Positions 13,731-61,165 of a DNA stretch of 64,000 bases are shown in pieces. Source of the DNA: Selenomonadales bacterium. Its GTDB lineage: Bacteria; Bacillota; Negativicutes; Sporomusales; UBA7701. Position numbers and translations under genes: made by a program. Location of the stretch: the NCBI GenBank assembly GCA_029976065.1, contig JARKNV010000069.1:83692-147691 (forward strand), read 5' to 3'. A model generated the notes under the pieces. That model saw only the letters and a program-made list of their open reading frames with translations. It was not told the DNA's origin and made no database searches. Each line of letters starts with the position of its first letter. Within the stretch, counting starts at the first letter, position 1.

Positions 13731-13766
13731 GCAAAAAACCCCTTCGGGAACCTTTTGGAATGCCGC

Positions 13767-13938
13767 GGCCGTTCAAAAGTGCCCAGATGCAAGGCGCCCC
13801 GGAAAAGCGCGCCGCGTACTCGGAATGTACGCAAGCAAGCGCTTTGAGGAGCAAGTGCGCAAGTTCTTAGCGCTTTAGTGCTTAGAACTGCGGCCTGCCC
13901 CTTGCGGGTACGCCGCAGATGGGCGCTTATCAACGGCC
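13767..13938. repeat. Intergenic structured repeat, copy 1 (with module B insertion)
   Basis: GGCCGTTCAAAAGTGCCCAGATGCAAGGCGCCCCGG...GAGGAGC...CGCAGATGGGCGCTTATCAACGGCC; lies between cobO and cbiA inside the operon. Confidence 0.85.
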
Positions 13939-13948
13939 GACTCCGTTT

Positions 13949-21864: not shown

Positions 21865-21941
21865 AAATAATAACAATATAAAAATTGTTATACCTATCTA
21901 CCCACCTGCCTATCTTCCGTAGGTCGTAACGGCGCGTGTTA

Positions 21942-22089
21942 GAACAGGCAGGTCTCCTGGCTTTGGTTCATCGCTTTCCCACGCCTTCCCGGTTGCCCAG
22001 TGGCCTAGTGTGGTTGGCTCGCCAATACAGTGGCGGGACCGCGCCGGATTGTACCGGCTTCCCTATTAAGCAAAGCACCTGTTCCCTAG
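21942..22089 (-). promoter_or_regulatory. Cobalamin riboswitch
   Basis: Minus strand: GGGAACAGGTGCTTTGCTTAATAGGGAAGCCGGT...GCGGTCCCGCCACTGT...GCCACTGGGCAACCGGGAAGGC...AAGCCAGGAGACCTGCCTGTTC; B12-box and canonical conserved core. Confidence 0.96.
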
Positions 22090-22357
22090 CTATTAAATTA
22101 CATTACGACGGTGTGGAGATATTATGTGCTTATATTCGGCCAGTATTACGGCGATTCCTGCTATTTACGGCAAAAAAGACAAATATTTAGCTTGGCATTG
22201 GGTATAAGGGTTTTCTTTATGTCCATCGGAAAAGTGTTCCCTTACATGTAAGAAAATTTAGTATTTTTCCTTAATTTACTGGAGGATTTCCCCCGGCGCG
22301 ACCAGAATATAAGCATGAACTGGTCAGTCCACCATACCGTGTGCAGGGAGTGATAGA

Positions 22358-27734: not shown

Positions 27735-27874
27735 TATATTGCAGCTCCTTTCGTGATATGTGCCTCTGGGGCCTCCTACATATTCGCCCTTTGCCAGGAA
27801 AACCCTTGCGAGGGAAAAAATAAAAAGGCCGGCACGATATGCTAGCCATATATTAAACTACCAGAATAAATGTA

Positions 27875-27902
27875 GAAAGCCTCCCGGCTAAGGGAGGCTT
27901 TC
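27875..27902. terminator. Intrinsic terminator
   Basis: GAAAGCCTCCCGGCTAAGGGAGGCTTTC downstream of korC. Confidence 0.8.
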
Positions 27903-27934
27903 TTGGCCATATCAGTTTCTCTCTCTGTCCGTCT

Positions 27935-28468
27935 CTATTTCTTTTCCCCGAGGCTGAAGCCGAGTTGGAGGGCCTTGGTGTTGACCTCTTCGGTGCCTTT
28001 GGGCACGCGGTCGAGGACGGCCTCGGTGACCGCCTTGCGGCTGACGATGCCGGTGCTGCTGACCAGGGCGCCGAGGGCGACGATGTTGGCGAACATGTCC
28101 TTTTTCAGATGGTCGCGGGCGGCTTTGGTGATGCCCACCGCTACGATGTCGGCGTCGATTTGGGGAATGGTGTCGACGTTGGTGGCGTCAACGATCATCT
28201 TGCCGCCTTTTTTGAGGATGCCGGCGTATTTGGTGCAGGCTTCCTGGCTCATGGCGAGCAGAATGTCGGCGGTGACGATTTTGGGGTAGTCGATTGCGTC
28301 GTCGGAGATGATTACTTCGGCTTTGCTGGCCCCGCCGCGGGCTTCCGGACCGTAGGACTGGGTCTGGATGGCCTGCTTGCCTTCGAGAATGGCGGCTTCG
28401 GCGAGGATGATGCCGGCGAGGATGATGCCCTGGCCGCCTGTACCGGTGAGGCTAATGCGCCATATCAA
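27935..28468 (-). CDS. korC: 2-oxoacid:ferredoxin oxidoreductase, gamma subunit
   Basis: TGTGGQGIILAGIILAEAAI...QSYGPEARGGASKAEVIISD. Confidence 0.92.
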   Translation of the reverse strand: MIWRISLTGTGGQGIILAGIILAEAAILEGKQAIQTQSYGPEARGGASKAEVIISDDAIDYPKIVTADILLAMSQEACTKYAGILKKGGKMIVDATNVDTIPQIDADIVAVGITKAARDHLKKDMFANIVALGALVSSTGIVSRKAVTEAVLDRVPKGTEEVNTKALQLGFSLGEKK

Positions 28469-35106: not shown

Positions 35107-35466
35107 ATGGATAATCCGGCCACTGGACTGAACATTAAACTTGCCCGCACGCTTTGGTTCAATACTTACCGCGCCATGGTCGAGGATTCCGCCGGCGAGT
35201 ATCTGGCCTCACTGCGGCTTATCCCGGCGATTCCGTTGGACCGCGACAGCGTGCCCGCCGACGCGCCGGAGGCGGAACCGTATCTGCTGGTGCTGGTAGA
35301 GGACGCGGTGTTTTCCGAGGAGGAGCTGATCAATTTCGAGGGCGAAGTTGCCGGCCTGCTGCTGGAGCGGATGGCTCAGCCCGATTTCAACCCCGCTTTC
35401 TGCCAGTTTGCTTATCCCTCGGCGCCGCGAGGCGCGGGCCCGCAAGTGATGGAGCTGGGGAGCTAG
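35107..35466 (+). CDS. Hypothetical protein
   Basis: MDNPATGLNIKLARTLWF...; the ATG at 35107 (GAAAGGA upstream) is preferred over 35086. Confidence 0.6.
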   Translation: MDNPATGLNIKLARTLWFNTYRAMVEDSAGEYLASLRLIPAIPLDRDSVPADAPEAEPYLLVLVEDAVFSEEELINFEGEVAGLLLERMAQPDFNPAFCQFAYPSAPRGAGPQVMELGS

Positions 35467-35477
35467 CTATTATGGTA

Positions 35478-35515
35478 AACGAAAAGAGAGTGCCGCAAGG
35501 CACTCTCTTTTCGTT
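35478..35515. terminator. Intrinsic terminator
   Basis: AACGAAAAGAGAGTGCC-GCAA-GGCACTCTCTTTTCGTT, perfect 17-bp stem. Confidence 0.9.
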
Positions 35516-35539
35516 CTCTTTCTATTATTGAATTCCCGC

Positions 35540-35770
35540 GGCCGTTCAGAAGTCCCCGGATGCAAGGCGCACCGGATAAGCAGACACACAACGCTTTAGC
35601 GTTGATGTGATCGCTTATCCCCGACAGGGTGCGAGCGCTTGCTAGCGTACTTGGTTGCGTACGCTAGCAAGCGCTCTGAGGAGCAAGTGCGCAAGTTCTT
35701 AGCGCTTTAGTGCTTAGAACTGCGGCCTGCCCCTTGCGGGTACGACGCAGACGGGGGCTTATCAACGGCC
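35540..35770. repeat. Intergenic structured repeat, copy 2 (modules A and B)
   Basis: GGCCGTTCAGAAGTCCCCGGATGCAAGGCGCACCGG...GAGGAGC...CGCAGACGGGGGCTTATCAACGGCC. Confidence 0.87.
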
Positions 35771-37309
35771 GATTCCTTTTTTGTAAACGGCGTGGCGTTC
35801 GAATTCCGCAATTTTTTTGTACCCCGGCAGCGGCGCGCCGCCTTTGCCGACAAGCAGGTATACTTCGGGCCGGCCGGCGGTGCGGGCGGTAAAAGCGTCC
35901 ACCGCTTCGGTGGGCATGGTGTATTTACCGGCCCATACTCCCTGGGGCGAGGCAACTGTTCCGACGAGTTGCGGGATGACGTAGCCGCTGTAAAAGACGG
36001 CGGAGGTGGCGTATTCGCCGATGATGGCGACGGTGGCGCCGGCGGGCGGCAGGGCGGCGGCGGCGTGCTTGGCGGAGCGTTCGGCGGCCATGGGGACAAG
36101 CACTTGGTGGATGAGCAGCAGGCTTACGACCAGGACAGCGGCGCCGGCGGCCAGCGGTTGACGAAAGGGTTCCCCCTTGTACCCCAGCCATAGCACGGCA
36201 GCCGCGCCGGTAACGGCAGCCAGTTGGAGAGGCCACCATGCGGCTTCCGGCAGCCATATGCCGCCGACGGCAAAAACGGCCAGCAACAGCGTCGCCGGCA
36301 GGGAGAGCCAGAGCAGGGGCTTGGGGCGGCCGGCCGACATTTTGTCGAGTTCGCCGGCCACGAGGACGGCGGCGGGGAACAGGGCGGGAAATACGTAGGT
36401 GAGGTATTTGGTGGCCATAAGGGTGTAAAAGGCGATGAATACGCCCGTCCATACGGCCAGGAAGGCGAAGTGCGGCCGCCGGCGCCCGGCAACGAGGGCG
36501 CGCAGGAAAACGCCCGTCCAGGGCAGGAGGCTGACGGGGAAGACGATGAGGTAGTAGTAGAAGACGTTGTCCTGGGGATGCTCGGAAACGGTGGCCCGCA
36601 GGTAGTTGTGGAGGCCGAGGAAGGTGTCGACGAAGTCGCGGCCGTGGACGGCGTACATGACGAGGTACCAGGGAGCGGCGACGGCGAGGAAGACGGCCGC
36701 GCCGGTAAAGAGGCGCAGGCGGCCGAGGAGTTCCCAGCGGCGGGTTATCGCGATGTAGGCGAACAGGACAAGGACGGGCATGACGAGGCCGACCGGACCC
36801 TTGGTGAGGACGGACAGGCCGGCGGCGGCGTAGGCGGGGATGAACCAGCCCCTCCCCTCCCCTTTCAGTCCGAGGTAGAAAGCGGCGAGGCTGACGCTGC
36901 CGAAAAAGAACAGGACGGCGTCGGTGATGACCATCCTGGCGATTACCCAGTATTCGAGCGAGGTGCCGAGGACAACGGCGGCCAGCACTCCGGCCGAGCC
37001 GCTGCCGTAAAGCCGGGCGGCGAACCAGGCGGCGAAGGCTACGCCGGCGGCGCTGAAGAGGGCGGCCGGGAAACGGGCCGCGAATTCGCCGATGCCGAAG
37101 ATTTTGTAGCTGGCGGCGATCAGCCAGTAGATCATGGCCGGCTTGTCGTACCAGAACTGGCCATAGATTTGAGGGGACAGCCAGTCGCCGCTGAGGAACA
37201 TTTCCTTGGCGGTAAGGGCGTAATTGGCTTCCACCGGGTCGGTTACGGGGATGAGGCCGTTAAAGGGCAGGAATACTGCCAGTGCGGCCAGGAAGATGAG
37301 CAGGGGCAT
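35762..37309 (-). CDS. Glycosyltransferase family 39 (ArnT-like)
   Basis: PVTDPVEANYALTAKEMFLSGDWLSPQIYGQFWYDKPAMIYWLIAASYKIFG; polytopic. Confidence 0.9.
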   Translation of the reverse strand: MPLLIFLAALAVFLPFNGLIPVTDPVEANYALTAKEMFLSGDWLSPQIYGQFWYDKPAMIYWLIAASYKIFGIGEFAARFPAALFSAAGVAFAAWFAARLYGSGSAGVLAAVVLGTSLEYWVIARMVITDAVLFFFGSVSLAAFYLGLKGEGRGWFIPAYAAAGLSVLTKGPVGLVMPVLVLFAYIAITRRWELLGRLRLFTGAAVFLAVAAPWYLVMYAVHGRDFVDTFLGLHNYLRATVSEHPQDNVFYYYLIVFPVSLLPWTGVFLRALVAGRRRPHFAFLAVWTGVFIAFYTLMATKYLTYVFPALFPAAVLVAGELDKMSAGRPKPLLWLSLPATLLLAVFAVGGIWLPEAAWWPLQLAAVTGAAAVLWLGYKGEPFRQPLAAGAAVLVVSLLLIHQVLVPMAAERSAKHAAAALPPAGATVAIIGEYATSAVFYSGYVIPQLVGTVASPQGVWAGKYTMPTEAVDAFTARTAGRPEVYLLVGKGGAPLPGYKKIAEFERHAVYKKGIGR

Positions 37310-37324
37310 TGTCCTGTCCTTTCG

Positions 37325-38857
37325 TCACTGCTTGACAAGCAGCAGTTTTTCGCCGACGGCGGCTAATACCTTGAACTTCTGTTTTTCGGTATTGTTCATC
37401 CAGTCCCAGTCGCCCGGACGGATGACGAAGTAGGCTTTGCCGGGAACGCCCCAGTGTTCGTAGGCCAGCTCGGTGCCGTATACGCCGGAGTAGAAGGCGA
37501 AACCGGGGCGAAGGAATTTGACGACATAGACGGGCGACTTGCCGTCGTAGTTAGCGGTGAAGGCCTGGGCGACGTCGCGGGCGTGAAAGGCCGGGGCGGC
37601 CGGTGGGAAAAGCAGCGACATGAGAACGACGACAAAGACGGCCATGCCGGCAATCTGCAGCCAGAAGGCCCGGCTTACATCCCGTTTGGCCACGAAGTAC
37701 CAGGTGCCGAGGATCATGGCAATGAAGACGGCGGCGGTGAAGTAGGCGCCGGGGAGAAGGTCGGGCATGGCGTTATAGGCGCCGTAGACGGCCCCGGCGG
37801 CGAGCAGGCCGCCGAAAACGGTCAGCAGCAGCGGCCAGGCGAAAGGCCGGTCACCGCGCCGCCAGTCCATGATGCGGTCGAGGTACCAGCCGACGATTAT
37901 GGCGAGCGGCGGATACATGGGCAGGATGTAGGAAACGAGCTTGGTCCGCGATGCGGTGAAGAACAGGAATATAAAGGCCGCCCAGATGGCGAGAAACACG
38001 AGGGGCCGGCGGTGCTGGGGGCGGCTGTCGGTCAGGGCCGCCCATACGGCCTGGAGCATTACGGCCGTCCAGGGAAGGAAGCCGAGGATGAGGACGGGGA
38101 TGAAGTAGTACCACAGCACCCCTTCCGGATGCTCGGGGCTGGTGAAGCGGGTGACGTTGTGAAACCCGAGGAAGGTATCGACGAAGGCGTTGCCGTGGAT
38201 GGCGTACATGGCGACGTACCAGGGCAGGCCGAACAGGGCGAAGAGAACGATCCCGGCGGGGATTTTCATTTCCTTGAGGAGGGAGAAGTTACGGGTCAGC
38301 AGCATGTACAGGAAGATGACGGCGCCGGGAAAGAGGAACCCCACCGGCCCCTTGGTGACGGTGGCGAGGCCGGCGCAGATGTAAAACAGGTAGTAACGCC
38401 GTTCGAGGAAGGCGAGCAGGGACACTGTCAGGAAAAAGGTGAGGGTGATGTCGGTGACCGCAGCTTTGCCGAGGTAGAAGTATTCGATGCTGGTGACGAG
38501 CACAAGCGCGCCTGCCAGGCCGGCGCGGGCGCCGAACAGGCGGGAGGCGGCGAAGTAAACGTAGAGGGCGCCGAGGATGGCGAGGAGGGCCGACGGCAGG
38601 CGGGCAGCGAATTCGCTGCTGCCGAGCAGTTTGAAGGAAGCCGCCACAAGCCAGTAGTACATGGGGGGTTTGTCGTACCAGTATTCGCCGTAGATGCGCG
38701 GCGATACGAAGTCCTGGTGGCTGAGCATTTCTTTGGCGGTTTCGGCATAGACGGGTTCGTCGGGATCGAGGAGCGGGATGCCGCCAAGATTATAGAACAT
38801 GACGAAGGCGGCAATCAGGATCAGCAGGATCGTGCCGAAGGTGGACCTTTCCGTCAT
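37325..38857 (-). CDS. Glycosyltransferase family 39 (ArnT-like), paralogue
   Basis: PLLDPDEPVYAETAKEMLSHQDFVSPRIYGEYWYDKPPMYYWLVAASFKLLG. Confidence 0.9.
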   Translation of the reverse strand: MTERSTFGTILLILIAAFVMFYNLGGIPLLDPDEPVYAETAKEMLSHQDFVSPRIYGEYWYDKPPMYYWLVAASFKLLGSSEFAARLPSALLAILGALYVYFAASRLFGARAGLAGALVLVTSIEYFYLGKAAVTDITLTFFLTVSLLAFLERRYYLFYICAGLATVTKGPVGFLFPGAVIFLYMLLTRNFSLLKEMKIPAGIVLFALFGLPWYVAMYAIHGNAFVDTFLGFHNVTRFTSPEHPEGVLWYYFIPVLILGFLPWTAVMLQAVWAALTDSRPQHRRPLVFLAIWAAFIFLFFTASRTKLVSYILPMYPPLAIIVGWYLDRIMDWRRGDRPFAWPLLLTVFGGLLAAGAVYGAYNAMPDLLPGAYFTAAVFIAMILGTWYFVAKRDVSRAFWLQIAGMAVFVVVLMSLLFPPAAPAFHARDVAQAFTANYDGKSPVYVVKFLRPGFAFYSGVYGTELAYEHWGVPGKAYFVIRPGDWDWMNNTEKQKFKVLAAVGEKLLLVKQ

Positions 38858-38859
38858 AG

Positions 38860-39798
38860 CTACCTCCCGTGTATTGATGGCGGGCTGCCAACCAGAGCGC
38901 GGTAGGTGGCGGCCAGGCCTTGGAGCAGGGTCGTCCGCGGCTGCCAGGGCAACGCCCGGACGGCGGCGCGGTTGTCGAGGCAGGAGCGGTAGATGTCGCC
39001 TTCCCTGGGAGGCTGGCGGCGGATGGCGGGTTCGCGTCCGGCCACTTTAGCCAGCAGGGCGGTCAGTTCGCTGACGCTGGTTTCTTCCTTGGTGCTTATA
39101 TTATATACGGCGTTGGCGGCCGGCGATACGAGGGCCAGCCAGTTGGCCTCGGCCACGTCGCCGGCGTAAACGAAGTCCCGCGTCTGGCCGCCGTCGCCGA
39201 AGATGTCTAGGTGTTGGCCGGCGGCGAGGCGCCGGGCAAAGATGCTTACCACGCCGCCTTCGCCGGCGTCGCCCTGCCGTTCGCCGTAAACGTTGGCGTA
39301 GCGGAGGATGACGTAGTCGAGGGCGAAGATTTCCTTGTAGAGTCTGAGGTAGTTTTCGGCCGTCATTTTGCTGAGGCCGTAGAAGGATAGCGGCGCCAGG
39401 GGCGTATTTTCGGGGATGGGGACGGCTTCACTAGCGCCGTAGACGGCGGCGGTGGAGGCGAAAATGACCCTTTTTACGCCGCTGAGGCGGGAGGCTTCGA
39501 GTACGTTGACGGTGCCGAGAACGTTTACGGCGCAGTCGATATCCGGGGCGTCCAGCGATTTTGGCACCGCCGTTTGGGCGGCGAGGTGGATGACGTAGTC
39601 GAACCGCTCGGCGGCGAAAACGGGCCTGAGATCGTCGCGGGCGATGTCGAGCTTGATGAGCCGCGCGGCGGAGTTGACGTTGGCCGCCAGACCGGTGCTG
39701 AGGTCGTCGATGACGACGACGGCGCAATCTTTGGCAAGAAGCTTGTCTACGATGTGGGAGCCGATGAAGCCGGCCCCGCCGGTGACGAGTACTTTCAC
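38860..39798 (-). CDS. NAD-dependent epimerase/dehydratase (UDP-glucose 4-epimerase-like)
   Basis: MKVLVTGGAGFIGSHIVDKLL; YGLSKMTAENY. Confidence 0.92.
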   Translation of the reverse strand: MKVLVTGGAGFIGSHIVDKLLAKDCAVVVIDDLSTGLAANVNSAARLIKLDIARDDLRPVFAAERFDYVIHLAAQTAVPKSLDAPDIDCAVNVLGTVNVLEASRLSGVKRVIFASTAAVYGASEAVPIPENTPLAPLSFYGLSKMTAENYLRLYKEIFALDYVILRYANVYGERQGDAGEGGVVSIFARRLAAGQHLDIFGDGGQTRDFVYAGDVAEANWLALVSPAANAVYNISTKEETSVSELTALLAKVAGREPAIRRQPPREGDIYRSCLDNRAAVRALPWQPRTTLLQGLAATYRALVGSPPSIHGR

Positions 39799-39850
39799 GG
39801 AAGCCCTCCTAAAAGGTTTATATTCTAAAATGAATTGCTGCTTTATACAA

Positions 39851-39971
39851 GGCCGTTCAAAAGTGCCCAGATGCTAGGCGGCTACGCCAGGTGCGCCGCG
39901 CCGCGTACTCGGAACGTACGCAAGCAAGCGCCTGGCGTAACAACAACGCAGATGGGCGCTTATCAACGGTC
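39851..39971. repeat. Intergenic structured repeat, copy 3
   Basis: GGCCGTTCAAAAGTGCCCAGATGCTAGGCGG...CGCAGATGGGCGCTTATCAACGGTC. Confidence 0.85.
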
Positions 39972-40958
39972 GGTTTTGCGAGGCTGATCGAATAGGAAAT
40001 CCTGACCGAACACCTTGACCGTATAATAAAAGCCGATGGAAAAGGGCAGGTATTCGGCGGCGATCCGCCAGGCGACGGCAAGAATGCCGACCGTGCCGAG
40101 GGGGAGAAGCTCTCCGAACAGGAGGACGAAGCCGCCTTCGGCGATGCCGGAGCCGCCCGGCGTCGGCGCGAAGTAGAGCAGAATGTTAAGAAAGATCATT
40201 CGCCCCATGACCAAAGGCCAGTCTACGACCGCCCCCAGGCCGAGGAAAAGGACGGGAACGACGGCGTAAAGGGCGAGCAGGCTGGCGGCCGATTCGGCGA
40301 ATACCCTGAGCATGCTGAGAGGCGCGGAGATCAGCAGGAAAACGGCGCCGCGGGTATCGCGGTAAAGGGAGAATATCTGGCGTCGGCGGCTACGGTCGAC
40401 GCGGCGGGTAAACCGTCGCAGCACCCTGAGGGAGAGCGGCGAGCGCAGGAACCATACGCCGGCGGCGCTGGCGAGGACGATGGCGCCGCTGACGGCGATG
40501 AGGACCTGCGGCGGTATCCAGGGCAGCAGGCGGGGATCGTAGGCGAAGACCAGCGGCAGGCAAACGAAGAGGAACATGATGGACATGAGGGTGCGGATAA
40601 AGACGACGACGGTGGCGATGCCGGTGGGTACGCCGGCGCGCCGCAGAAACATGACCTGGGCGACCGCCCCGCCGGTAGCGCCCGGGGTGAGGAGGGCGGC
40701 GAAGTAGTTGCTGAATATAACCTGCACCGCCTGGATCAAGGTTATCCGCTGGCCGGCGATACCCACGAGATGGAGCAGCCGTGTCCCGTCGAAAAACATG
40801 CCGATGGCGATGAGCACGGCGACGGCGGCCAGCGACCAGGGCCGGAAGGCCCCCAGGTGGCTGAGGGTGTCGATGCCGACGGTGAAGTAGATTACGGCCG
40901 CGGATATGCCGCCGACGAGCAGGATGAGCAGGGCGAGACGCCGCTGGAATTTATTCAT
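39963..40958 (-). CDS. Lysylphosphatidylglycerol synthase-type TM (flippase-like) protein
   Basis: UPF0104/LPG_synthase_TM pattern (NYFAALLTPGATGGAVAQVMFLRRAGVPTGIATVVVFIRTLMS; PTPGGSGIAEGGF). Confidence 0.85.
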   Translation of the reverse strand: MNKFQRRLALLILLVGGISAAVIYFTVGIDTLSHLGAFRPWSLAAVAVLIAIGMFFDGTRLLHLVGIAGQRITLIQAVQVIFSNYFAALLTPGATGGAVAQVMFLRRAGVPTGIATVVVFIRTLMSIMFLFVCLPLVFAYDPRLLPWIPPQVLIAVSGAIVLASAAGVWFLRSPLSLRVLRRFTRRVDRSRRRQIFSLYRDTRGAVFLLISAPLSMLRVFAESAASLLALYAVVPVLFLGLGAVVDWPLVMGRMIFLNILLYFAPTPGGSGIAEGGFVLLFGELLPLGTVGILAVAWRIAAEYLPFSIGFYYTVKVFGQDFLFDQPRKTDR

Positions 40959-41805
40959 GGCCGAGTTCCCCGAAGGAGATGAGCTTGATTCCGTTGGCCG
41001 CGAGGCGCTGCCTGGTGAGGGGGCTGGTAAGGGCGGCAAGCTCCTCCTGCCAGTGGTAGCCCCAGCCGTAAAGCGCTCCCAGCGCGGCGTCGTCGTCGCC
41101 GGGGTGAACCATTATTTCGCTTGCGCCGTCCGGCAGGCGGTCGAGGATGGTGAGCAGGAATTGCTGGCGCATGTTGCCGCCGGCAAGCATGCCGAAGAAA
41201 TGGTCGGGTACGGCAAAGCCGCGCCGTTTTGCTTTTATGCGGGCGAGCGACGCCAGCGACGACAGGCCGAAGCGGCCTACAAACCGGCCGGCGGTGCACG
41301 GGTAGCCGCCGAAGAAGAAGCGCGGCTCGGCGGGAATGCGCAGGGCTTTGATGCCGAACCGGGCAGCGAGGTCGAGGACGATGTCGATGATGCCGGGGAG
41401 GACGTGGAGGTGCTGATGGCTGTCGAGGTGGGTGATTTTTACGCCGGCGGCGGCGGCCCTGGCCACCTGGGCGGTGAGTTCGGTGCGTATTTCGTCCATA
41501 CTGACGCGGCCGCGCAGGAAGCGGGCGAGAAAGGCGGGGTACTGTCCGGGAAAGCGGCCTGCGTCGTCGAGTAACGTGGGGATGGAGGCGGGGTCGGCGA
41601 CGGGCCTCTCCCCCACCAGCGTTAGGTGAACGCCGGTGCCGAGGGACGGGTGGCGGCCAGCCTGGAGGACGGCGTCGGCAAAGGCGGCGGCGCCGGGCAT
41701 GAGGGAGGTGCTGGTTATGCAGCCTCCGGTGTGACCGGCGATGACGGCCCTGTTTACCGCCGGGTGAAGGCCGAAGTCGTCGGCGTTTATGATGAGCAGT
41801 TTCAT
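40951..41805 (-). CDS. ChbG/HpnK (YdjC) family deacetylase
   Basis: LLIINADDFGLHPAVNRAVI; ITHLDSHQHLHVLPGI. Confidence 0.93.
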   Translation of the reverse strand: MKLLIINADDFGLHPAVNRAVIAGHTGGCITSTSLMPGAAAFADAVLQAGRHPSLGTGVHLTLVGERPVADPASIPTLLDDAGRFPGQYPAFLARFLRGRVSMDEIRTELTAQVARAAAAGVKITHLDSHQHLHVLPGIIDIVLDLAARFGIKALRIPAEPRFFFGGYPCTAGRFVGRFGLSSLASLARIKAKRRGFAVPDHFFGMLAGGNMRQQFLLTILDRLPDGASEIMVHPGDDDAALGALYGWGYHWQEELAALTSPLTRQRLAANGIKLISFGELGHE

Positions 41806-41972
41806 TGGCGGACCCTTTCTTGGCGCAGTGGCGGTACTAGTGTTTACCGACGGGCCGATATTCTTCCCGCCGTTTGCCCGGCAGGCCGTGTCTGCCCTAA
41901 TTTTCCAGGTATTCCGCCTATAGGGCGGATAATACTAATCATGTCTCCAGTTTATTATGAGGAGGTTTCTCT

Positions 41973-42263
41973 GTGGACAAAAAGAATCAGCAGTCCAAGT
42001 CTCAATTCGGCACGCTGACAGCCAAACATGACGCCAATCAGGATTACACATCGTCCACCGCCGGCAGCATGTCTGGCACGAGCGGTACGATGGGGACGAG
42101 CGGCACTTCTGGGATGAGCGGCTCGATGAGCGGCAGCGCCAGCGGCGCCGGGACAATGACCGCCAAGTTCGACGCCAACAACGATTACGGCGGCAAAAGC
42201 GGCAGCCAGAGCGGCCAGTCGGGACAGCAAAAGGTCAAAACTTCGGATAAGAATATCAAGTAA
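41973..42263 (+). CDS. Low-complexity Ser/Gly-rich small protein, possibly gamma-SASP-like
   Basis: NQQSKSQFGTLTAKHDANQDY and TMTAKFDANNDY flanking an SG-rich linker; SD AGGAGG upstream. Confidence 0.6.
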   Translation: MDKKNQQSKSQFGTLTAKHDANQDYTSSTAGSMSGTSGTMGTSGTSGMSGSMSGSASGAGTMTAKFDANNDYGGKSGSQSGQSGQQKVKTSDKNIK

Positions 42264-42272
42264 GCATGACGT

Positions 42273-42299
42273 AAAGGGAGCCTGGCGAAGGCTCCCTTT
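42273..42299. terminator. Intrinsic terminator (identical to 42507-42533)
   Basis: AAAGGGAGCCTGGCGAAGGCTCCCTTT followed by T-rich sequence. Confidence 0.85.
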
Positions 42300-42325
42300 T
42301 CCTTACAGAGAGACTTCGTATTGTG

Positions 42326-42507
42326 TCAGGCCGTTCAGAAAGTCCCAGATGCTAGGCGCACCGGATAAGCAGACACACAACGCTTCAGCGTTGATGTGCT
42401 CGCTTATACCCGAAAGAGTGCGAGCGCGCCGCGCCGCGTACTCAAAACGTACGCAAGCAAGCGCTCTGAGAAGCAACGACGCAGATGGGGCTTTATCAAC
42501 GGCCTGA
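42326..42507. repeat. Intergenic structured repeat, copy 4 (module A)
   Basis: TCAGGCCGTTCAGAAAGTCCCAGATGCTAGGCGCACCGGATAAGC...CGCAGATGGGGCTTTATCAACGGCCTGA. Confidence 0.87.
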
Positions 42508-42533
42508 AAGGGAGCCTGGCGAAGGCTCCCTTT
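42507..42533. terminator. Intrinsic terminator (identical copy)
   Basis: AAAGGGAGCCTGGCGAAGGCTCCCTTT. Confidence 0.8.
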
Positions 42534-42543
42534 CTCCTTCTCG

Positions 42544-43725
42544 TTACACGTGCCGGGCCAGTAGTGCGCCCAAGCGGGCTATGCCGGCGGCGATTTCCTC
42601 TTCGCCGGTATTGGCGAAGCTGAGGCGGAAGGTGTTATGCCCGCCGCCGTCGGTGTGGAAGGGCGTGCCGGGCACATAGGCGACCTTGGCGTCGTCAATG
42701 GCCTTGGTCAGCAGTTCGCGGGCATCGAGGGCCGGCGGCAGGGTGACCCAGATGAACATGCCGCCTTCCGGCAGCGTCCAAGAGACGCCGGCGGGAAAGC
42801 TGGCGGCAAGGGCCGCGAGCATGGCGTCGCGCTGGCGGTGATAAAAGCCGGTGATGGTGGCGATGTGGGCGTCGAGGTCGTTGTCGACAAGGTAACGGTG
42901 GAGCGCCCGCTGGGTCAGGGAGTTGGTGAGGATGTCGTTGAGCTGTTTGGCGGCTGTTACTTTGTTCGCAATGTCGGGATGGGCGACGAACCACCCTACC
43001 CTGAGGCCGGGGGCGATGACTTTGGAGAAGGTGCCGGTGTACATGACCCAGTCGCTGTCAGCAATGCTTTTGATCGGGGGAATGTCGGGGCCGCCGAAGC
43101 GGAGTTCGCCGTAAGGATTGTCTTCGAGCAGCGGTATTTCGTGTTCGGCGGCCAGTTCGCCGAGGCGACGGCGCTTTTCGAGGCTGAGGGTTATGCCGGT
43201 GGGATTCTGGAAGTTGGGGTTGACGTAGATGAATTTGGGCCGCACTTTCTTGAGCTGGCGGGCCAAGGCGTCGACGTCCATGCCGTCGCTTTCCATGGGC
43301 ACGGGCAGGAAGCTGGCCTGGTAGCTGCGGAAAGGCTGCAGGGCGGCCAGGTAGGCGGGGTTTTCGACGGCGATCAGGTCGCCGGGGTTGAGGAGCAGGC
43401 GGCCGATGAAATCAATGGCCTGCTGGGAGCCGCTGGTGATGACGATGTTTTCGGGACCGCAGGCGATGCCGGTGCGCTCCAGGCGCCGGACGAGCAGTTC
43501 GCGCAGCGGCGGGTAGCCTTCGGCAAGGCTGTACTGGAGGGCGGCCCCGGCCTGCTCGTTGAGCACGGCGGTATAGGCGGCCGCCAGGCGGCCGACGGGA
43601 AACGTCCTGGCCGACGGCAGTCCGCCGGCGAAGGAGGTGATGTCGGTGCGCTGGGTTATTTTGAGCATCATTTTGACGGCGGGATCTTCCATGGTGGCTA
43701 CGCGGTCGGCCCAGGTGATGTTCAT
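42544..43725 (-). CDS. PLP-dependent aminotransferase (class I/II, 2-aminoadipate transaminase-like)
   Basis: ITSGSQQAIDFIGRLLLNPGD; YVNPNFQNPTGITL; YTGTFSKVIAPGLRVGW; MNITWADRV start. Confidence 0.9.
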   Translation of the reverse strand: MNITWADRVATMEDPAVKMMLKITQRTDITSFAGGLPSARTFPVGRLAAAYTAVLNEQAGAALQYSLAEGYPPLRELLVRRLERTGIACGPENIVITSGSQQAIDFIGRLLLNPGDLIAVENPAYLAALQPFRSYQASFLPVPMESDGMDVDALARQLKKVRPKFIYVNPNFQNPTGITLSLEKRRRLGELAAEHEIPLLEDNPYGELRFGGPDIPPIKSIADSDWVMYTGTFSKVIAPGLRVGWFVAHPDIANKVTAAKQLNDILTNSLTQRALHRYLVDNDLDAHIATITGFYHRQRDAMLAALAASFPAGVSWTLPEGGMFIWVTLPPALDARELLTKAIDDAKVAYVPGTPFHTDGGGHNTFRLSFANTGEEEIAAGIARLGALLARHV

Positions 43726-43747
43726 ACGGATACCTCCCGGAATATAA

Positions 43748-45709
43748 TCAGTGCGTAGGCCGGCGACGGCGTGACCGGCGGGCCGACAACTTGGCCTCGT
43801 AGTCTTCGACGAGGGCGATTTCGGCGGCGGAAAGGTCGTAAATTTTGTAAACCATCTGGTTGAAAAGGTCGTCCATGGCGGCGACACGGGCGGCGGCGCC
43901 GCTGTCGCCATCGCGGCGGCGGCGGACGACGGTGGTCATTATCCTGACGAGCTCGGGGGCGCGGGCGTTGGCTTCGGCATGGACCTTGACCGGCAGGAGT
44001 TCGAGGGTGTCGATGTCGGTCTGGGCCATCGACCGGCCGTATTCCATGGTAACGGCGTGATAGTAAAAGGACAGCAGCCGGGAGTTGAGAAGCAGCAGCA
44101 GGTAGTCGAGGGTGACGGCGCCGCTTCTGGCGACAAAGCTATGAAGATTGTTGAGGTGGTAATAGCCGTTGTCGTCGATGCAGGCGGTGAGGGTGAATCC
44201 CGTCTGGCGGACGAGGATTTTGCGGATGCCGACGATGGCCGGGTCCCAACCGCCTTTGTAGAGCCGGTCGGGGTCGATGTTGAGCCAGTGGCCCTCGTAG
44301 GTGAGGCCGTAGCGCTCGACCTGGCTGCCGGAGATAAGCCCGCGCCGCCAGGTGGGGCCGGCGCAGGCCGGGCCGATGATGTCGCTCTGCTTGGAGACGG
44401 AGCGGACGCCGGTGTGCCCGGATGCAAAATTTGCCAGGGGCTCATTGCTATTATCTATTTTATCAATCAGGTTTTTGACCGTCAAATCGGAAAACAGCCG
44501 GAACCGCTGATGGGGGAGCGCGGCGAAGTAGCTCTGGGAATAGGAGCACCCGGCCGCGCCGGCCTTGAGGTCGTCCTTGCTTTCAACCTGGCGGATGGTA
44601 ACCGCCTGGCGGCTGCGGGCCGCAGGATCGCTTTCCCGCCGCAGGATGCTGATCGCCGACATGCCGACGGCGGCGTTTTTGAACACCGGCAAGGAAATGT
44701 GGGCCATGGTTTCGATGGCGGTGTGGTCCATTATGTAGCGGCGGATTTTCGAGTAGTAGCGGCCGAGCAGGAAACTGTCGGGGAGGATGAACCCCAGCCG
44801 CCCTCCTTCGACGAGCATTTCGATGCCGCGCTCGAGGAAGAGGACGTAATAGCTGAGTTTGTATTCGGCCGAGGCGCTGAAGGCGCTGCGCAGATAGGCT
44901 TCGTAGTCGCGGTCGAGGCGCCGGGCGCCCCGCAGGCCGAAGGACAGGTACGGCGGGTTGCCGACGACGAAATCGTACCGCGCCGACCAGAAGGCCCGGT
45001 CGCCGCCGGCGCCCTGCTCCGGCCGGCGAAGGCTGTCGCAGACGAGGATGTTGGGGCATAGGCCGCCACTGGCGGCCGGCCTTTTGAGCAGCAGCCCGGC
45101 GGCGGCGGTTTCGGCGGCGAGGCCGTCGATATCGGCGCCCCACAGGTTGCGGGTGAGGATATGCCGGTGGATGCCGTCGTCCGACCAGTCGCGATCCGGG
45201 AACCGGCGGGCGAGGACGGTACGGTCGGCGGTGAACCGGGCCCGGAGGAGGTCGTAGGCGCGGAGGAGAAAGTTGCCGCAGCCGCAGGCAGGGTCGAGAA
45301 TTTTTATGTCCGGGTCGGCGATTACGTCGGCTTGGGCGACGGTGCCGGCGAGGATGAAATCGATTATCTGGGGGGCGGTATAGAAAAGGCCCTGGGCCCG
45401 GCGGCCGAGGGCGAGCTTTTCGTAAAGTTCGCCGAGGAGCCAGGCATCGCGGGGCAGGGTGCACAGCCAGCGGGAGATGATGGTGTGGATGCGGTCGGGT
45501 ATTTCGGTGTCGCCGGCGCAAGGCGGCCCGCTGGCGGCAATGGACAGTGCCGGGGCTCTAGCCGCCTGGGCGGCGACGGCCTCGGCGGGCAGGCCGCCGC
45601 GCAGCACGGCGACGAGCACGGTCAGGAGGCCCCGTTCGGCCGCCAGGCCCTGAGCCGCCAGCCAGGTTTTCATTTCTTGGCATTCCGCCAGAAAGTGCTT
45701 CCAGTTCAT
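43748..45709 (-). CDS. Eco57I/TaqI-type N6-adenine DNA methyltransferase (orphan)
   Basis: ILDPACGCGNFLLRAYDLL (motif I), VVGNPPYLSF (motif IV); TaqI-like C-terminal specificity region. Confidence 0.9.
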   Translation of the reverse strand: MNWKHFLAECQEMKTWLAAQGLAAERGLLTVLVAVLRGGLPAEAVAAQAARAPALSIAASGPPCAGDTEIPDRIHTIISRWLCTLPRDAWLLGELYEKLALGRRAQGLFYTAPQIIDFILAGTVAQADVIADPDIKILDPACGCGNFLLRAYDLLRARFTADRTVLARRFPDRDWSDDGIHRHILTRNLWGADIDGLAAETAAAGLLLKRPAASGGLCPNILVCDSLRRPEQGAGGDRAFWSARYDFVVGNPPYLSFGLRGARRLDRDYEAYLRSAFSASAEYKLSYYVLFLERGIEMLVEGGRLGFILPDSFLLGRYYSKIRRYIMDHTAIETMAHISLPVFKNAAVGMSAISILRRESDPAARSRQAVTIRQVESKDDLKAGAAGCSYSQSYFAALPHQRFRLFSDLTVKNLIDKIDNSNEPLANFASGHTGVRSVSKQSDIIGPACAGPTWRRGLISGSQVERYGLTYEGHWLNIDPDRLYKGGWDPAIVGIRKILVRQTGFTLTACIDDNGYYHLNNLHSFVARSGAVTLDYLLLLLNSRLLSFYYHAVTMEYGRSMAQTDIDTLELLPVKVHAEANARAPELVRIMTTVVRRRRDGDSGAAARVAAMDDLFNQMVYKIYDLSAAEIALVEDYEAKLSARRSRRRRPTH

Positions 45710-45783
45710 GCCGCTACCCCGTACCGCTTCTTAATTCCGCTAAGTATATATGTAGATCGTCGTTGACGTATAACAGTCTGTGC

Positions 45784-45962
45784 GAGGTGGGTTAGAAAGT
45801 TCCAGATGCAAGGCGCACCGGAGGCTGACACCGGAAGCGTACACGAACGTACGCTGCACCCGTAAAGGGTAGGCCGCAGTTCTAAGCGCAAAAGCGCCAA
45901 GAACTTGCGCACAGGATGGCAGCCGAGGAGCAACGCCGCAGATGGGCTTTATAACCCACCTC
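45784..45962. repeat. Intergenic structured repeat, copy 5 (module B inverted)
   Basis: GAGGTGGGTTAGAAAGTTCCAGATGCAAGGCGCACCGG...GAGGAGCAACGCCGCAGATGGGCTTTATAACCCACCTC. Confidence 0.85.
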
Positions 45963-45967
45963 CCCTG

Positions 45968-46756
45968 TTATCTGTCGACAGTCTCTACGTGGGAGGCGTA
46001 GGCGCTGTGGTTATGTATCGACTCATAATTCTCGCATTCGACCTCGAACCAGGCAACGCCGTCCAGGGCCCTGAACGCCAGGACCAGGTCGCGGAGGACG
46101 TCTTCGACGAATTTGGGGTTTTCGTAGGCGAGCTCGGTGACGTATTTCTCGTCCTCGCGCTTGAGGAGGGAAAATACGGGGGCGCTCCCCTGGGCTTCCA
46201 TGATCGCGGCCAGGTCCTCGATCCAGATGAAGCGGCCGGGCTGGAACCTGACTTTGGCGCGCATGAGGCCGCGCTGGTTGTGAGCCCCGTAGGAGGAGAT
46301 CTCCTTGCTGCAGGGACACAGGGAGGTGAAGGGGACGGTGAGGCCGAGGACGAAATCGAGGTGGCTGCCCTGCTGCAGACCGCCGGCGAACACGCAGTCG
46401 TAATCGAGCAGGCTTTTCAGGCCACTGGCGGGGGCGGTTTTTTCGATAAAATATTTGAAGGCGATGTCGATGTGGGCGCGCCGCGCATCCAGCCGGCCTG
46501 ATAGGTCGGCGAGGATGGCTTCCATTTCCCGGTAGGATACAGGCTTCTGGCTCCAGTCGCTGAGCACTTCGATGAAGCGGCTCATATGGGTGCCCTTGTA
46601 TTCTTTGGGGAGGTCGACGGTCAGTTTGATGTTGGCCAGCACAGATTGGAATGAGCCGCTTTTGCGTTTGATGAGGAAGGGCAGATGGACTTCGCTCACG
46701 CCGACTTTCTGGATGGCGATGCCCCGTTCGTCGGCCAGGCTTTGCACGTCTTTCAT
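45968..46756 (-). CDS. folE2: GTP cyclohydrolase FolE2 (type IB)
   Basis: MKDVQSLADERGIAIQKVGVSEVHLP...LPKEYKGTHMSRFIEVL; LCPCSKEIS. Confidence 0.93.
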   Translation of the reverse strand: MKDVQSLADERGIAIQKVGVSEVHLPFLIKRKSGSFQSVLANIKLTVDLPKEYKGTHMSRFIEVLSDWSQKPVSYREMEAILADLSGRLDARRAHIDIAFKYFIEKTAPASGLKSLLDYDCVFAGGLQQGSHLDFVLGLTVPFTSLCPCSKEISSYGAHNQRGLMRAKVRFQPGRFIWIEDLAAIMEAQGSAPVFSLLKREDEKYVTELAYENPKFVEDVLRDLVLAFRALDGVAWFEVECENYESIHNHSAYASHVETVDR

Positions 46757-56347: not shown

Positions 56348-56466
56348 GGCGGAATTAAAAGGCTCAGATGCAAGGCGCACCGGAAGGGCGCGCCGCGACG
56401 TGTACTCGAATGTACACTAGCAAGCGCCCTGAGGAGCAACGACGCAGATGAGTCTTTTAAACCGCC
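56348..56466. repeat. Intergenic structured repeat, copy 6
   Basis: GGCGGAATTAAAAGGCTCAGATGCAAGGCGCACCGG...GAGGAGCAACGACGCAGATGAGTCTTTTAAACCGCC. Confidence 0.85.
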
Positions 56467-61041: not shown

Positions 61042-61165
61042 GAGGCTGGCTAGAAAGTCCATCTGCGGCGTTGCTTCCTCAGAGCGCTTGCTAGCGTACA
61101 TTCGAGTACGCGTCGCGGCGCGCTCTTCCGGTGCGCCTTGCATCTGGAGCTTTCTAGACAGCCTC
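61042..61165. repeat. Intergenic structured repeat, copy 7 (inverted relative to copies 1-6)
   Basis: Minus strand: GAGGCTGTCTAGAAAGCTCCAGATGCAAGGCGCACCGGAAGAGCGC...GCGCTCTGAGGAAGCAACGCCGCAGATGGACTTTCTAGCCAGCCTC. Confidence 0.87.

What the first reader, a model, noticed from the sequence alone, without database searches (positions are those of the whole stretch)
35585..45915. Modular nested hairpin cassettes inside the repeat family, including an inverted module
Module A (GATAAGCAGACACACAACGCT..AGCGTTGATGTG.TCGCTTAT) is inserted after ACCG in copies 2 and 4 only. Module B (GTGCGCAAGTTCTTAGCGCTTTAGTGCTTAGAACTGCGGCCTGCCCCTTGCGGGTAC) is inserted at the same site, after GAGGAGCAA, in copies 1 and 2. 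A diverged module B appears in copy 5 in reverse orientation (GCACCCGTAAAGGGTAGGCCGCAGTTCTAAGCGCAAAAGCGCCAAGAACTTGCGCAC) at another position. Each module is itself a hairpin, so the elements look assembled from exchangeable palindromic parts.
Basis: seen in the sequence. Interest (0 to 1): 0.7.

Follow-up and report, generated by a model that had tools for sequence, protein, structure and literature searches.

The report
Hairpin repeats with swappable heads
This bacterium carries a large family of structured DNA repeats placed just after genes, in which a stem that stays at each site carries a 'head' made of hairpin modules, and related species hold the same stem with a different head.

Summary
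Module A is in copies 2 and 4. Module B is at one junction in copies 1 and 2. A diverged, inverted B lies in copy 5. The window holds seven copies, the genome probably well over 100; 141 distinct copies were collected from five genomes of the genus. The fold is strongly supported: 22 of 32 core pairs have compensatory changes, and G·U far exceeds A·C on one strand (120:9 in the inner outer stem). Modules are discretely present or absent, not gradually decayed. At orthologous sites in sister species the outer stem is often kept while the head differs: 40 of 45 pairs differ in architecture, and 28 of 32 heads are closer to a paralogue in their own genome. Modules also occur outside the element (A beside 16S rRNA genes; B in a second repeat family). 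Copies sit next to stop codons, mostly antisense to neighbouring genes; recent insertions are bracketed by a duplicated 20-27 bp terminator hairpin. Best reading: a non-autonomous, class-restricted structured repeat family whose heads spread between copies by ectopic gene conversion. The general kind is known (BOX, BIME, MITE-like); the head swapping is the new part. Mobilising enzyme and any function are unknown.

The parts
13765..13940 (+). copy 1: outer stem 13765-13784/13921-13940; C1 arm; module B
13855..13911 (+). module B, forward, in copy 1
   Evidence: identical to the B of copy 2
35539..35771 (+). copy 2: outer stem, module A, fully palindromic C1 arm, module B
   Evidence: z -10.3
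35575..35618 (+). module A in copy 2
35631..35676 (+). central C1 arm of copy 2, perfect-palindrome form
35687..35743 (+). module B, forward, in copy 2
39851..39971 (+). copy 3: outer stem and C1 arm only; the sister species G004 has a C2 head at this site
42326..42507 (+). copy 4: outer stem, module A, C1 arm; absent at the same site in G001, G003 and G004
42364..42407 (+). module A in copy 4
42273..42299 (+). terminator hairpin, left copy of the 27-bp duplication flanking copy 4
   Evidence: single copy in three relatives
42507..42533 (+). terminator hairpin, right copy of the 27-bp duplication flanking copy 4
45784..45962 (+). copy 5: outer stem 45784-45803/45944-45962; C2 arm with inverted B
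45823..45924 (+). C2 arm of copy 5, interrupted by inverted B
   Evidence: uninterrupted C2 arms elsewhere
45856..45912 (-). module B, inverted, in copy 5
   Evidence: a second inverted B at the same place in L039
56348..56466 (+). further copy: C1 head; G004 has a C2 head on the same outer stem
61042..61165 (-). further copy: C1 head; G001 has an armless form, G003 no element

Best explanation
A non-autonomous, structured, dispersed repeat family. Each copy is a locus-specific outer stem, a conserved tandem G-A hinge (AGATGC/GCAGAT), and a head of one to several hairpin arms. SHOWN: the fold, the discrete modules, their fixed junctions, and replacement of the head at orthologous sites while the outer stem stays. 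SHOWN: heads resemble paralogues of the same genome more than their orthologues. INFERRED: hairpin modules, some of which also exist on their own, entered loops of the head on rare occasions, and whole heads then spread from copy to copy by ectopic gene conversion or template switching between short conserved stretches around the hinge. INFERRED: whole elements insert near gene ends and terminators, duplicating about 20-27 bp, by an unidentified trans-acting enzyme; copies facing with the gene are mostly removed by selection, because the folded strand would be part of the mRNA.
For: Covariation 0.412 against 0.166+-0.007 shuffled and at most 0.107 slid. G-U 120 vs A-C 9 in outer-stem pairs 1-6; the bias has the same sign whichever way the copy faces its genes (34:8 sense, 80:22 antisense), which speaks against transcription-linked mutation bias. 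Orthologous sites: 5 pairs with the same architecture, 40 different. Outer stems 0.81 identical vs 0.64 for non-orthologues, but heads 0.62 vs 0.59; 28 of 32 heads closer to a same-genome paralogue. Of 21 pairs with a kept distal stem and a changed architecture, 8 keep the stem right up to the hinge and others break further out: variable endpoints, as gene conversion gives. Copy 4 is present in one of four species with a 27-bp terminator duplication; similar duplications in L008, L063, L065, L082, L085. Orientation 61 antisense vs 19 sense, convergent 14 vs divergent 4; 53 of 62 antisense copies end within 38 nt of a stop codon.
Against: Identical stretches at the swap edges are only about 8-12 nt, short for RecA-type conversion. 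No mobilising enzyme was found: no Y1 transposase in the own genome and no pair of element ends around a longer insert in 1.65 Mb. The architecture classes come from my own regular expressions, and the gene calls are rough (one window gene was called on the wrong strand). The paralogue test compares the best of many paralogues with one orthologue. Most copies show no visible target duplication. No expression data.
Confidence: 0.6

Rival explanations
1. Modules are autonomous mobile hairpins (REP/IS200-like palindromic units) that insert one at a time into loops of the element by a single-strand transposase, and leave it again.
For: A and B occur outside the element: A beside 16S rRNA genes and as separate intergenic repeats in G094, G113 and G194, B in a second repeat family. 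Both have the layout long hairpin + mini-hairpin. B is found in both orientations. D is cleanly present or absent at one site in G001/G004.
Against: No Y1 transposase in G000 or G002. Whole-head replacement is commoner than single-module change. Modules keep fixed junctions.
Confidence: 0.2
2. A dedicated enzyme cuts at the tandem G-A hinge and swaps heads site-specifically, a programmed diversification system.
For: The hinge AGATGC/GCAGAT is nearly invariant; in 8 of 21 swapped pairs the outer stem is kept right up to it.
Against: Other breakpoints lie further out; no candidate enzyme seen; invariance may simply be structural.
Confidence: 0.08
3. Loss and independent re-insertion: elements are lost and new ones with other heads land at the same favoured spot after the stop codon.
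For: Strong preference for stop-codon edges; some loci have quite different outer stems between species (copy 5 site).
Against: Sixteen orthologous pairs share outer stems above the 99th percentile of non-orthologous pairs, e.g. GAATTCGTTTAAAAGCTCC and GGCGGAATTAAAAGGCTC, most with changed heads.
Confidence: 0.1
4. Selection for a cellular RNA function (3' UTR, processing or antisense RNA) maintains and diversifies the copies.
For: Deep covariation on one strand; position next to stop codons.
Against: Position not kept between species (30 mapped sites without a detected copy); folded strand mostly antisense to the mRNA; no promoter evidence; no Rfam family.
Confidence: 0.15

Closest known systems
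BOX elements of Streptococcus (PMC3049150)
   Same: Composite repeats of exchangeable modules in intergenic regions, predicted to fold as RNA, module number differs between strains, target duplications.
   Different: BOX modules lie in linear tandem between boxA and boxC; here modules are nested hairpins at distinct loop sites on a locus-specific stem, one of them inverted, and whole heads change at orthologous sites.
REP/BIME with RAYT (Y1) transposases (PMC2817692, PMC3733652)
   Same: Many intergenic imperfect palindromes at gene ends, combined into mosaics; modules A and B resemble such units in size and shape.
   Different: 85-230 nt multi-arm elements; no Y1 transposase in the own genome.
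MITEs (Correia, RUP, ERIC type)
   Same: Short, non-coding, folded, dispersed, target duplication in recent copies.
   Different: Ends are not fixed inverted repeats but locus-specific complementary stems; duplication of 20-27 bp is long; no parent transposon found.
Stem-loop sequence families of bacterial genomes (PMC2267715)
   Same: Families of intergenic sequences sharing a predicted fold.
   Different: A survey of 40 genomes; I did not check its families for this element; its abstract does not describe head exchange.

Membership tests
BOX elements | boxA and boxC ends with a variable tandem number of boxB | tested here: not met
   Modules are single, non-tandem, at several different loop sites. 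BOX sequences themselves were not aligned.
BOX elements | modular composite with strain- or species-level module gain/loss | tested here: met
REP/BIME | 20-40 nt palindromic unit | tested here: not met
   Whole element 85-230 nt; only single modules are near this size
REP/BIME | RAYT (Y1) transposase in the genome | tested here: not met
   PF01797: none in G000 (88% complete) or G002; IS200-like in G001
MITE | conserved terminal inverted repeats | tested here: inconclusive
   Consensus CAGGCCGTT..AACGGCCTG, but sequence differs by locus while staying complementary
MITE | target-site duplication | tested here: met
   3-4 of 141 copies, up to 27 bp exact; none in random pairing; empty site in three species
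MITE | autonomous partner with the same ends | tested here: inconclusive
   None in 1.65 Mb scanned; not scanned genome-wide
Rfam RNA families | match to a curated covariance model | tested here: not met
   No match at E<=1 in 35400-46100

The most novel reading that the evidence does not exclude
Heads are exchanged by a dedicated, site-specific process acting at the tandem G-A hinge (protein or RNA mediated), making the family a combinatorial system that shuffles structured nucleic-acid modules on fixed genomic anchors.
Probability: 0.1. Interest if true: 0.85.

Novelty: new variant of a known kind. Interest (0 to 1): 0.6.

Why it matters
Dispersed palindromic repeats are usually treated as decaying mobile debris. 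Here a hundred-copy family keeps its fold while its inner modules turn over faster than its locations, and modules are shared with unrelated repeats and rRNA leaders. It gives a natural data set for how structured repeats acquire parts, and for testing whether very short homologies next to hairpins drive gene conversion in bacteria.

Tried and rejected
RAYT-driven REP system: no Y1 gene in the own genome. Known RNA family: no Rfam hit. Plasmid or phage cargo: none in PLSDB or INPHARED, one IMG/VR contig. Replication-strand bias: I expected orientation to follow the replichore in G001 (dnaA at 3.696 Mb), but it did not (ccw 21 + vs 9 -, only 2 cw copies in the sample); by eye it followed local GC skew, and gene direction explains it. 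Autonomous partner by orphan ends: none. Mutation-bias explanation of the G-U excess: rejected because the bias persists in sense-oriented copies. The genus could not be named: G003 matches the MAG 'Selenomonadales bacterium SL1-B47'.

Full report
Observation. Module A lies at 35575-35618 and 42364-42407, module B as identical 57-mers at 13855-13911 and 35687-35743, and a diverged B on the other strand at 45856-45912. Two more copies lie at 56348-56466 and 61042-61165 (-).

Where it is. The window is part of a 3.42 Mb draft (G000, 82 contigs, 88% complete). BLAST with copy 4 gives 163 first-look candidates there and 111-224 in four other genomes of the genus. Of those only a capped number were scored, so copy numbers are estimates. 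One relative, G003, corresponds to the MAG Selenomonadales bacterium SL1-B47 (matching contig length). In a sample of 61 genomes, 31 gave matches, including several families of the class. In a sample of 300 genomes of the phylum only the own genome matched, among roughly 290 outside the class. The family therefore looks class-restricted (Negativicutes, judged from the name of the MAG).

Anatomy. A copy has an outer stem of about 20 bp, a hinge AGATGC/GCAGAT in which G-A and A-G face each other, and a head. The simplest head is one arm (C1, apex CGTAC..GTACG). Alternatives are C2 (GGCTGACACC..GGATGGCAGCC) and C3 (GGCCCGCGACGG..GTGGGCC). Optional modules sit at fixed places: A on the 5' side of the arm, B on its 3' side, D or E on the 5' strand below the apex, inverted B on the 3' strand of C2. 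One copy (L006) has an A-like module at the B site. In 141 distinct copies from the genus, 47 were C1 without module, 17 C1 with A, 8 with B, 11 with both, the rest other combinations.

Fold. On 63 core sequences, 94% of cells pair, 22 of 32 pairs show compensatory change, and the covariation score is 0.412 against 0.166+-0.007 in shuffles and at most 0.107 when slid. In the outer stem, pairs 1-6, G-U outnumbers A-C 120 to 9 in the orientation given. Single-strand folding of this strand is therefore what is maintained. G-T is also tolerated in single-stranded DNA, so this alone does not tell RNA from ssDNA. The asymmetry holds in copies facing either way relative to genes, so it is not a by-product of transcription-linked mutation.

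Position. With rough gene calls over 1.65 Mb (one known error), 61 copies lie between genes that run against them, 19 between genes that run with them, 14 are convergent and 4 divergent; the background has twice as many divergent as convergent gaps. In the antisense group 53 of 62 copies end within 38 nt of the stop codon of the gene on their 3' side. The outer arm read along the gene often contains TTGATAA, i.e. two stop codons, which some genes appear to use.

Insertion. Copy 4 is absent at the same place in G001, G003 and G004, which have one terminator hairpin where the window has two, 27 bp identical, on either side of the element. L008 and L063 show similar 21-27 bp duplications, and so do L065, L082 and L085 from other genera. 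Such matches do not occur in random pairings of flanks.

Head exchange. Collinear regions of own contig C58, G001, G004 and G003 gave 45 orthologous pairs of copies. Five had the same architecture, 40 did not, and 30 mapped sites had no detected copy. Outer stems of orthologous pairs are more alike than those of others (0.81 vs 0.64), heads are not (0.62 vs 0.59), and 28 of 32 heads on well-conserved stems are closer to some paralogue in the same genome than to the orthologue. Clear cases: the stem GAATTCGTTTAAAAGCTCC carries a C1 head in the own genome and C2 in G004; GGCGGAATTAAAAGGCTC likewise; the site of copy 1 has module D in G001 and not in G004; the site of copy 5 has C2 with inverted B (own), forward B (G003), a C3-type head (G004) and no arm (G001). 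Caveats: classes rest on pattern matches of mine, and the paralogue test compares the best of many with one.

Modules outside the element. A-like hairpins joined to a second small hairpin lie directly before 16S rRNA genes in G018, G023, G031 and G050, and as intergenic repeats in G094, G113 and G194. About six B copies lie in another repeat type of this genus with CCATGG hairpins. So the modules have a life of their own.

Mechanism. Gene conversion between copies explains why heads are homogenised within a genome, why outer stems stay, and why break points vary. The short shared stretches (8-12 nt) fit template switching at hairpins better than RecA exchange; that is inference. What moves the whole element is unknown: no Y1 transposase in the own genome, no pair of ends enclosing a gene in the sampled sequence, none in plasmids or phages.

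Known kinds. BOX elements of streptococci are the nearest described case of modular folded repeats with module gain and loss (PMC3049150). REP/BIME and MITEs share other traits but fail, or leave open, defining tests. The literature searches found no description of this family, within an open-access library only.

Noticed in passing
window 42273-42299 and 42507-42533; L008, L063, L065, L082, L085: Recent insertions are bracketed by a duplicated terminator hairpin of about 20-30 bp, unusually long for a transposon target duplication.
   Followed up: partly
L083, L084, L229, L231, L238, L239 (around 1500): A hairpin like module A, reverse orientation, lies immediately before the 16S rRNA gene start in several genomes of the class, joined to GTTCGATGCGTTAGCAGTCGAAC.
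   Followed up: partly
L230, L241, L249 (G094); L232, L242, L250 (G113); L213, L214: Module-A-like hairpins occur as stand-alone intergenic repeats in other families of the class.
   Followed up: partly
genus loci with B next to GCCATGGACGG; G004 intergenic region opposite window 27830-27945: A second nested-hairpin repeat family (CCATGG hairpins) shares module B and resembles module D.
   Followed up: no
G001 at the sites of window 45784-45962 and 61042-61165: Two armless copies with the same junction AAGGCGC|TCTGAGGAGCAACG, as if arms are deleted between short GCGC repeats.
   Followed up: no
L062 (G004:C19:1369-4540): Two elements in head-to-tail tandem sharing the stretch AGACAAGGCCAGCGACCGTTCAGAAG.
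   Followed up: no
L302 4625-4643 (IMG/VR contig): The only viral contig with an exact match to the element core; whether it is a provirus of a Negativicutes host was not examined.
   Followed up: no
window 21930-22097 (-): Cobalamin riboswitch (Rfam RF00174), the only Rfam hit in the window.
   Followed up: no
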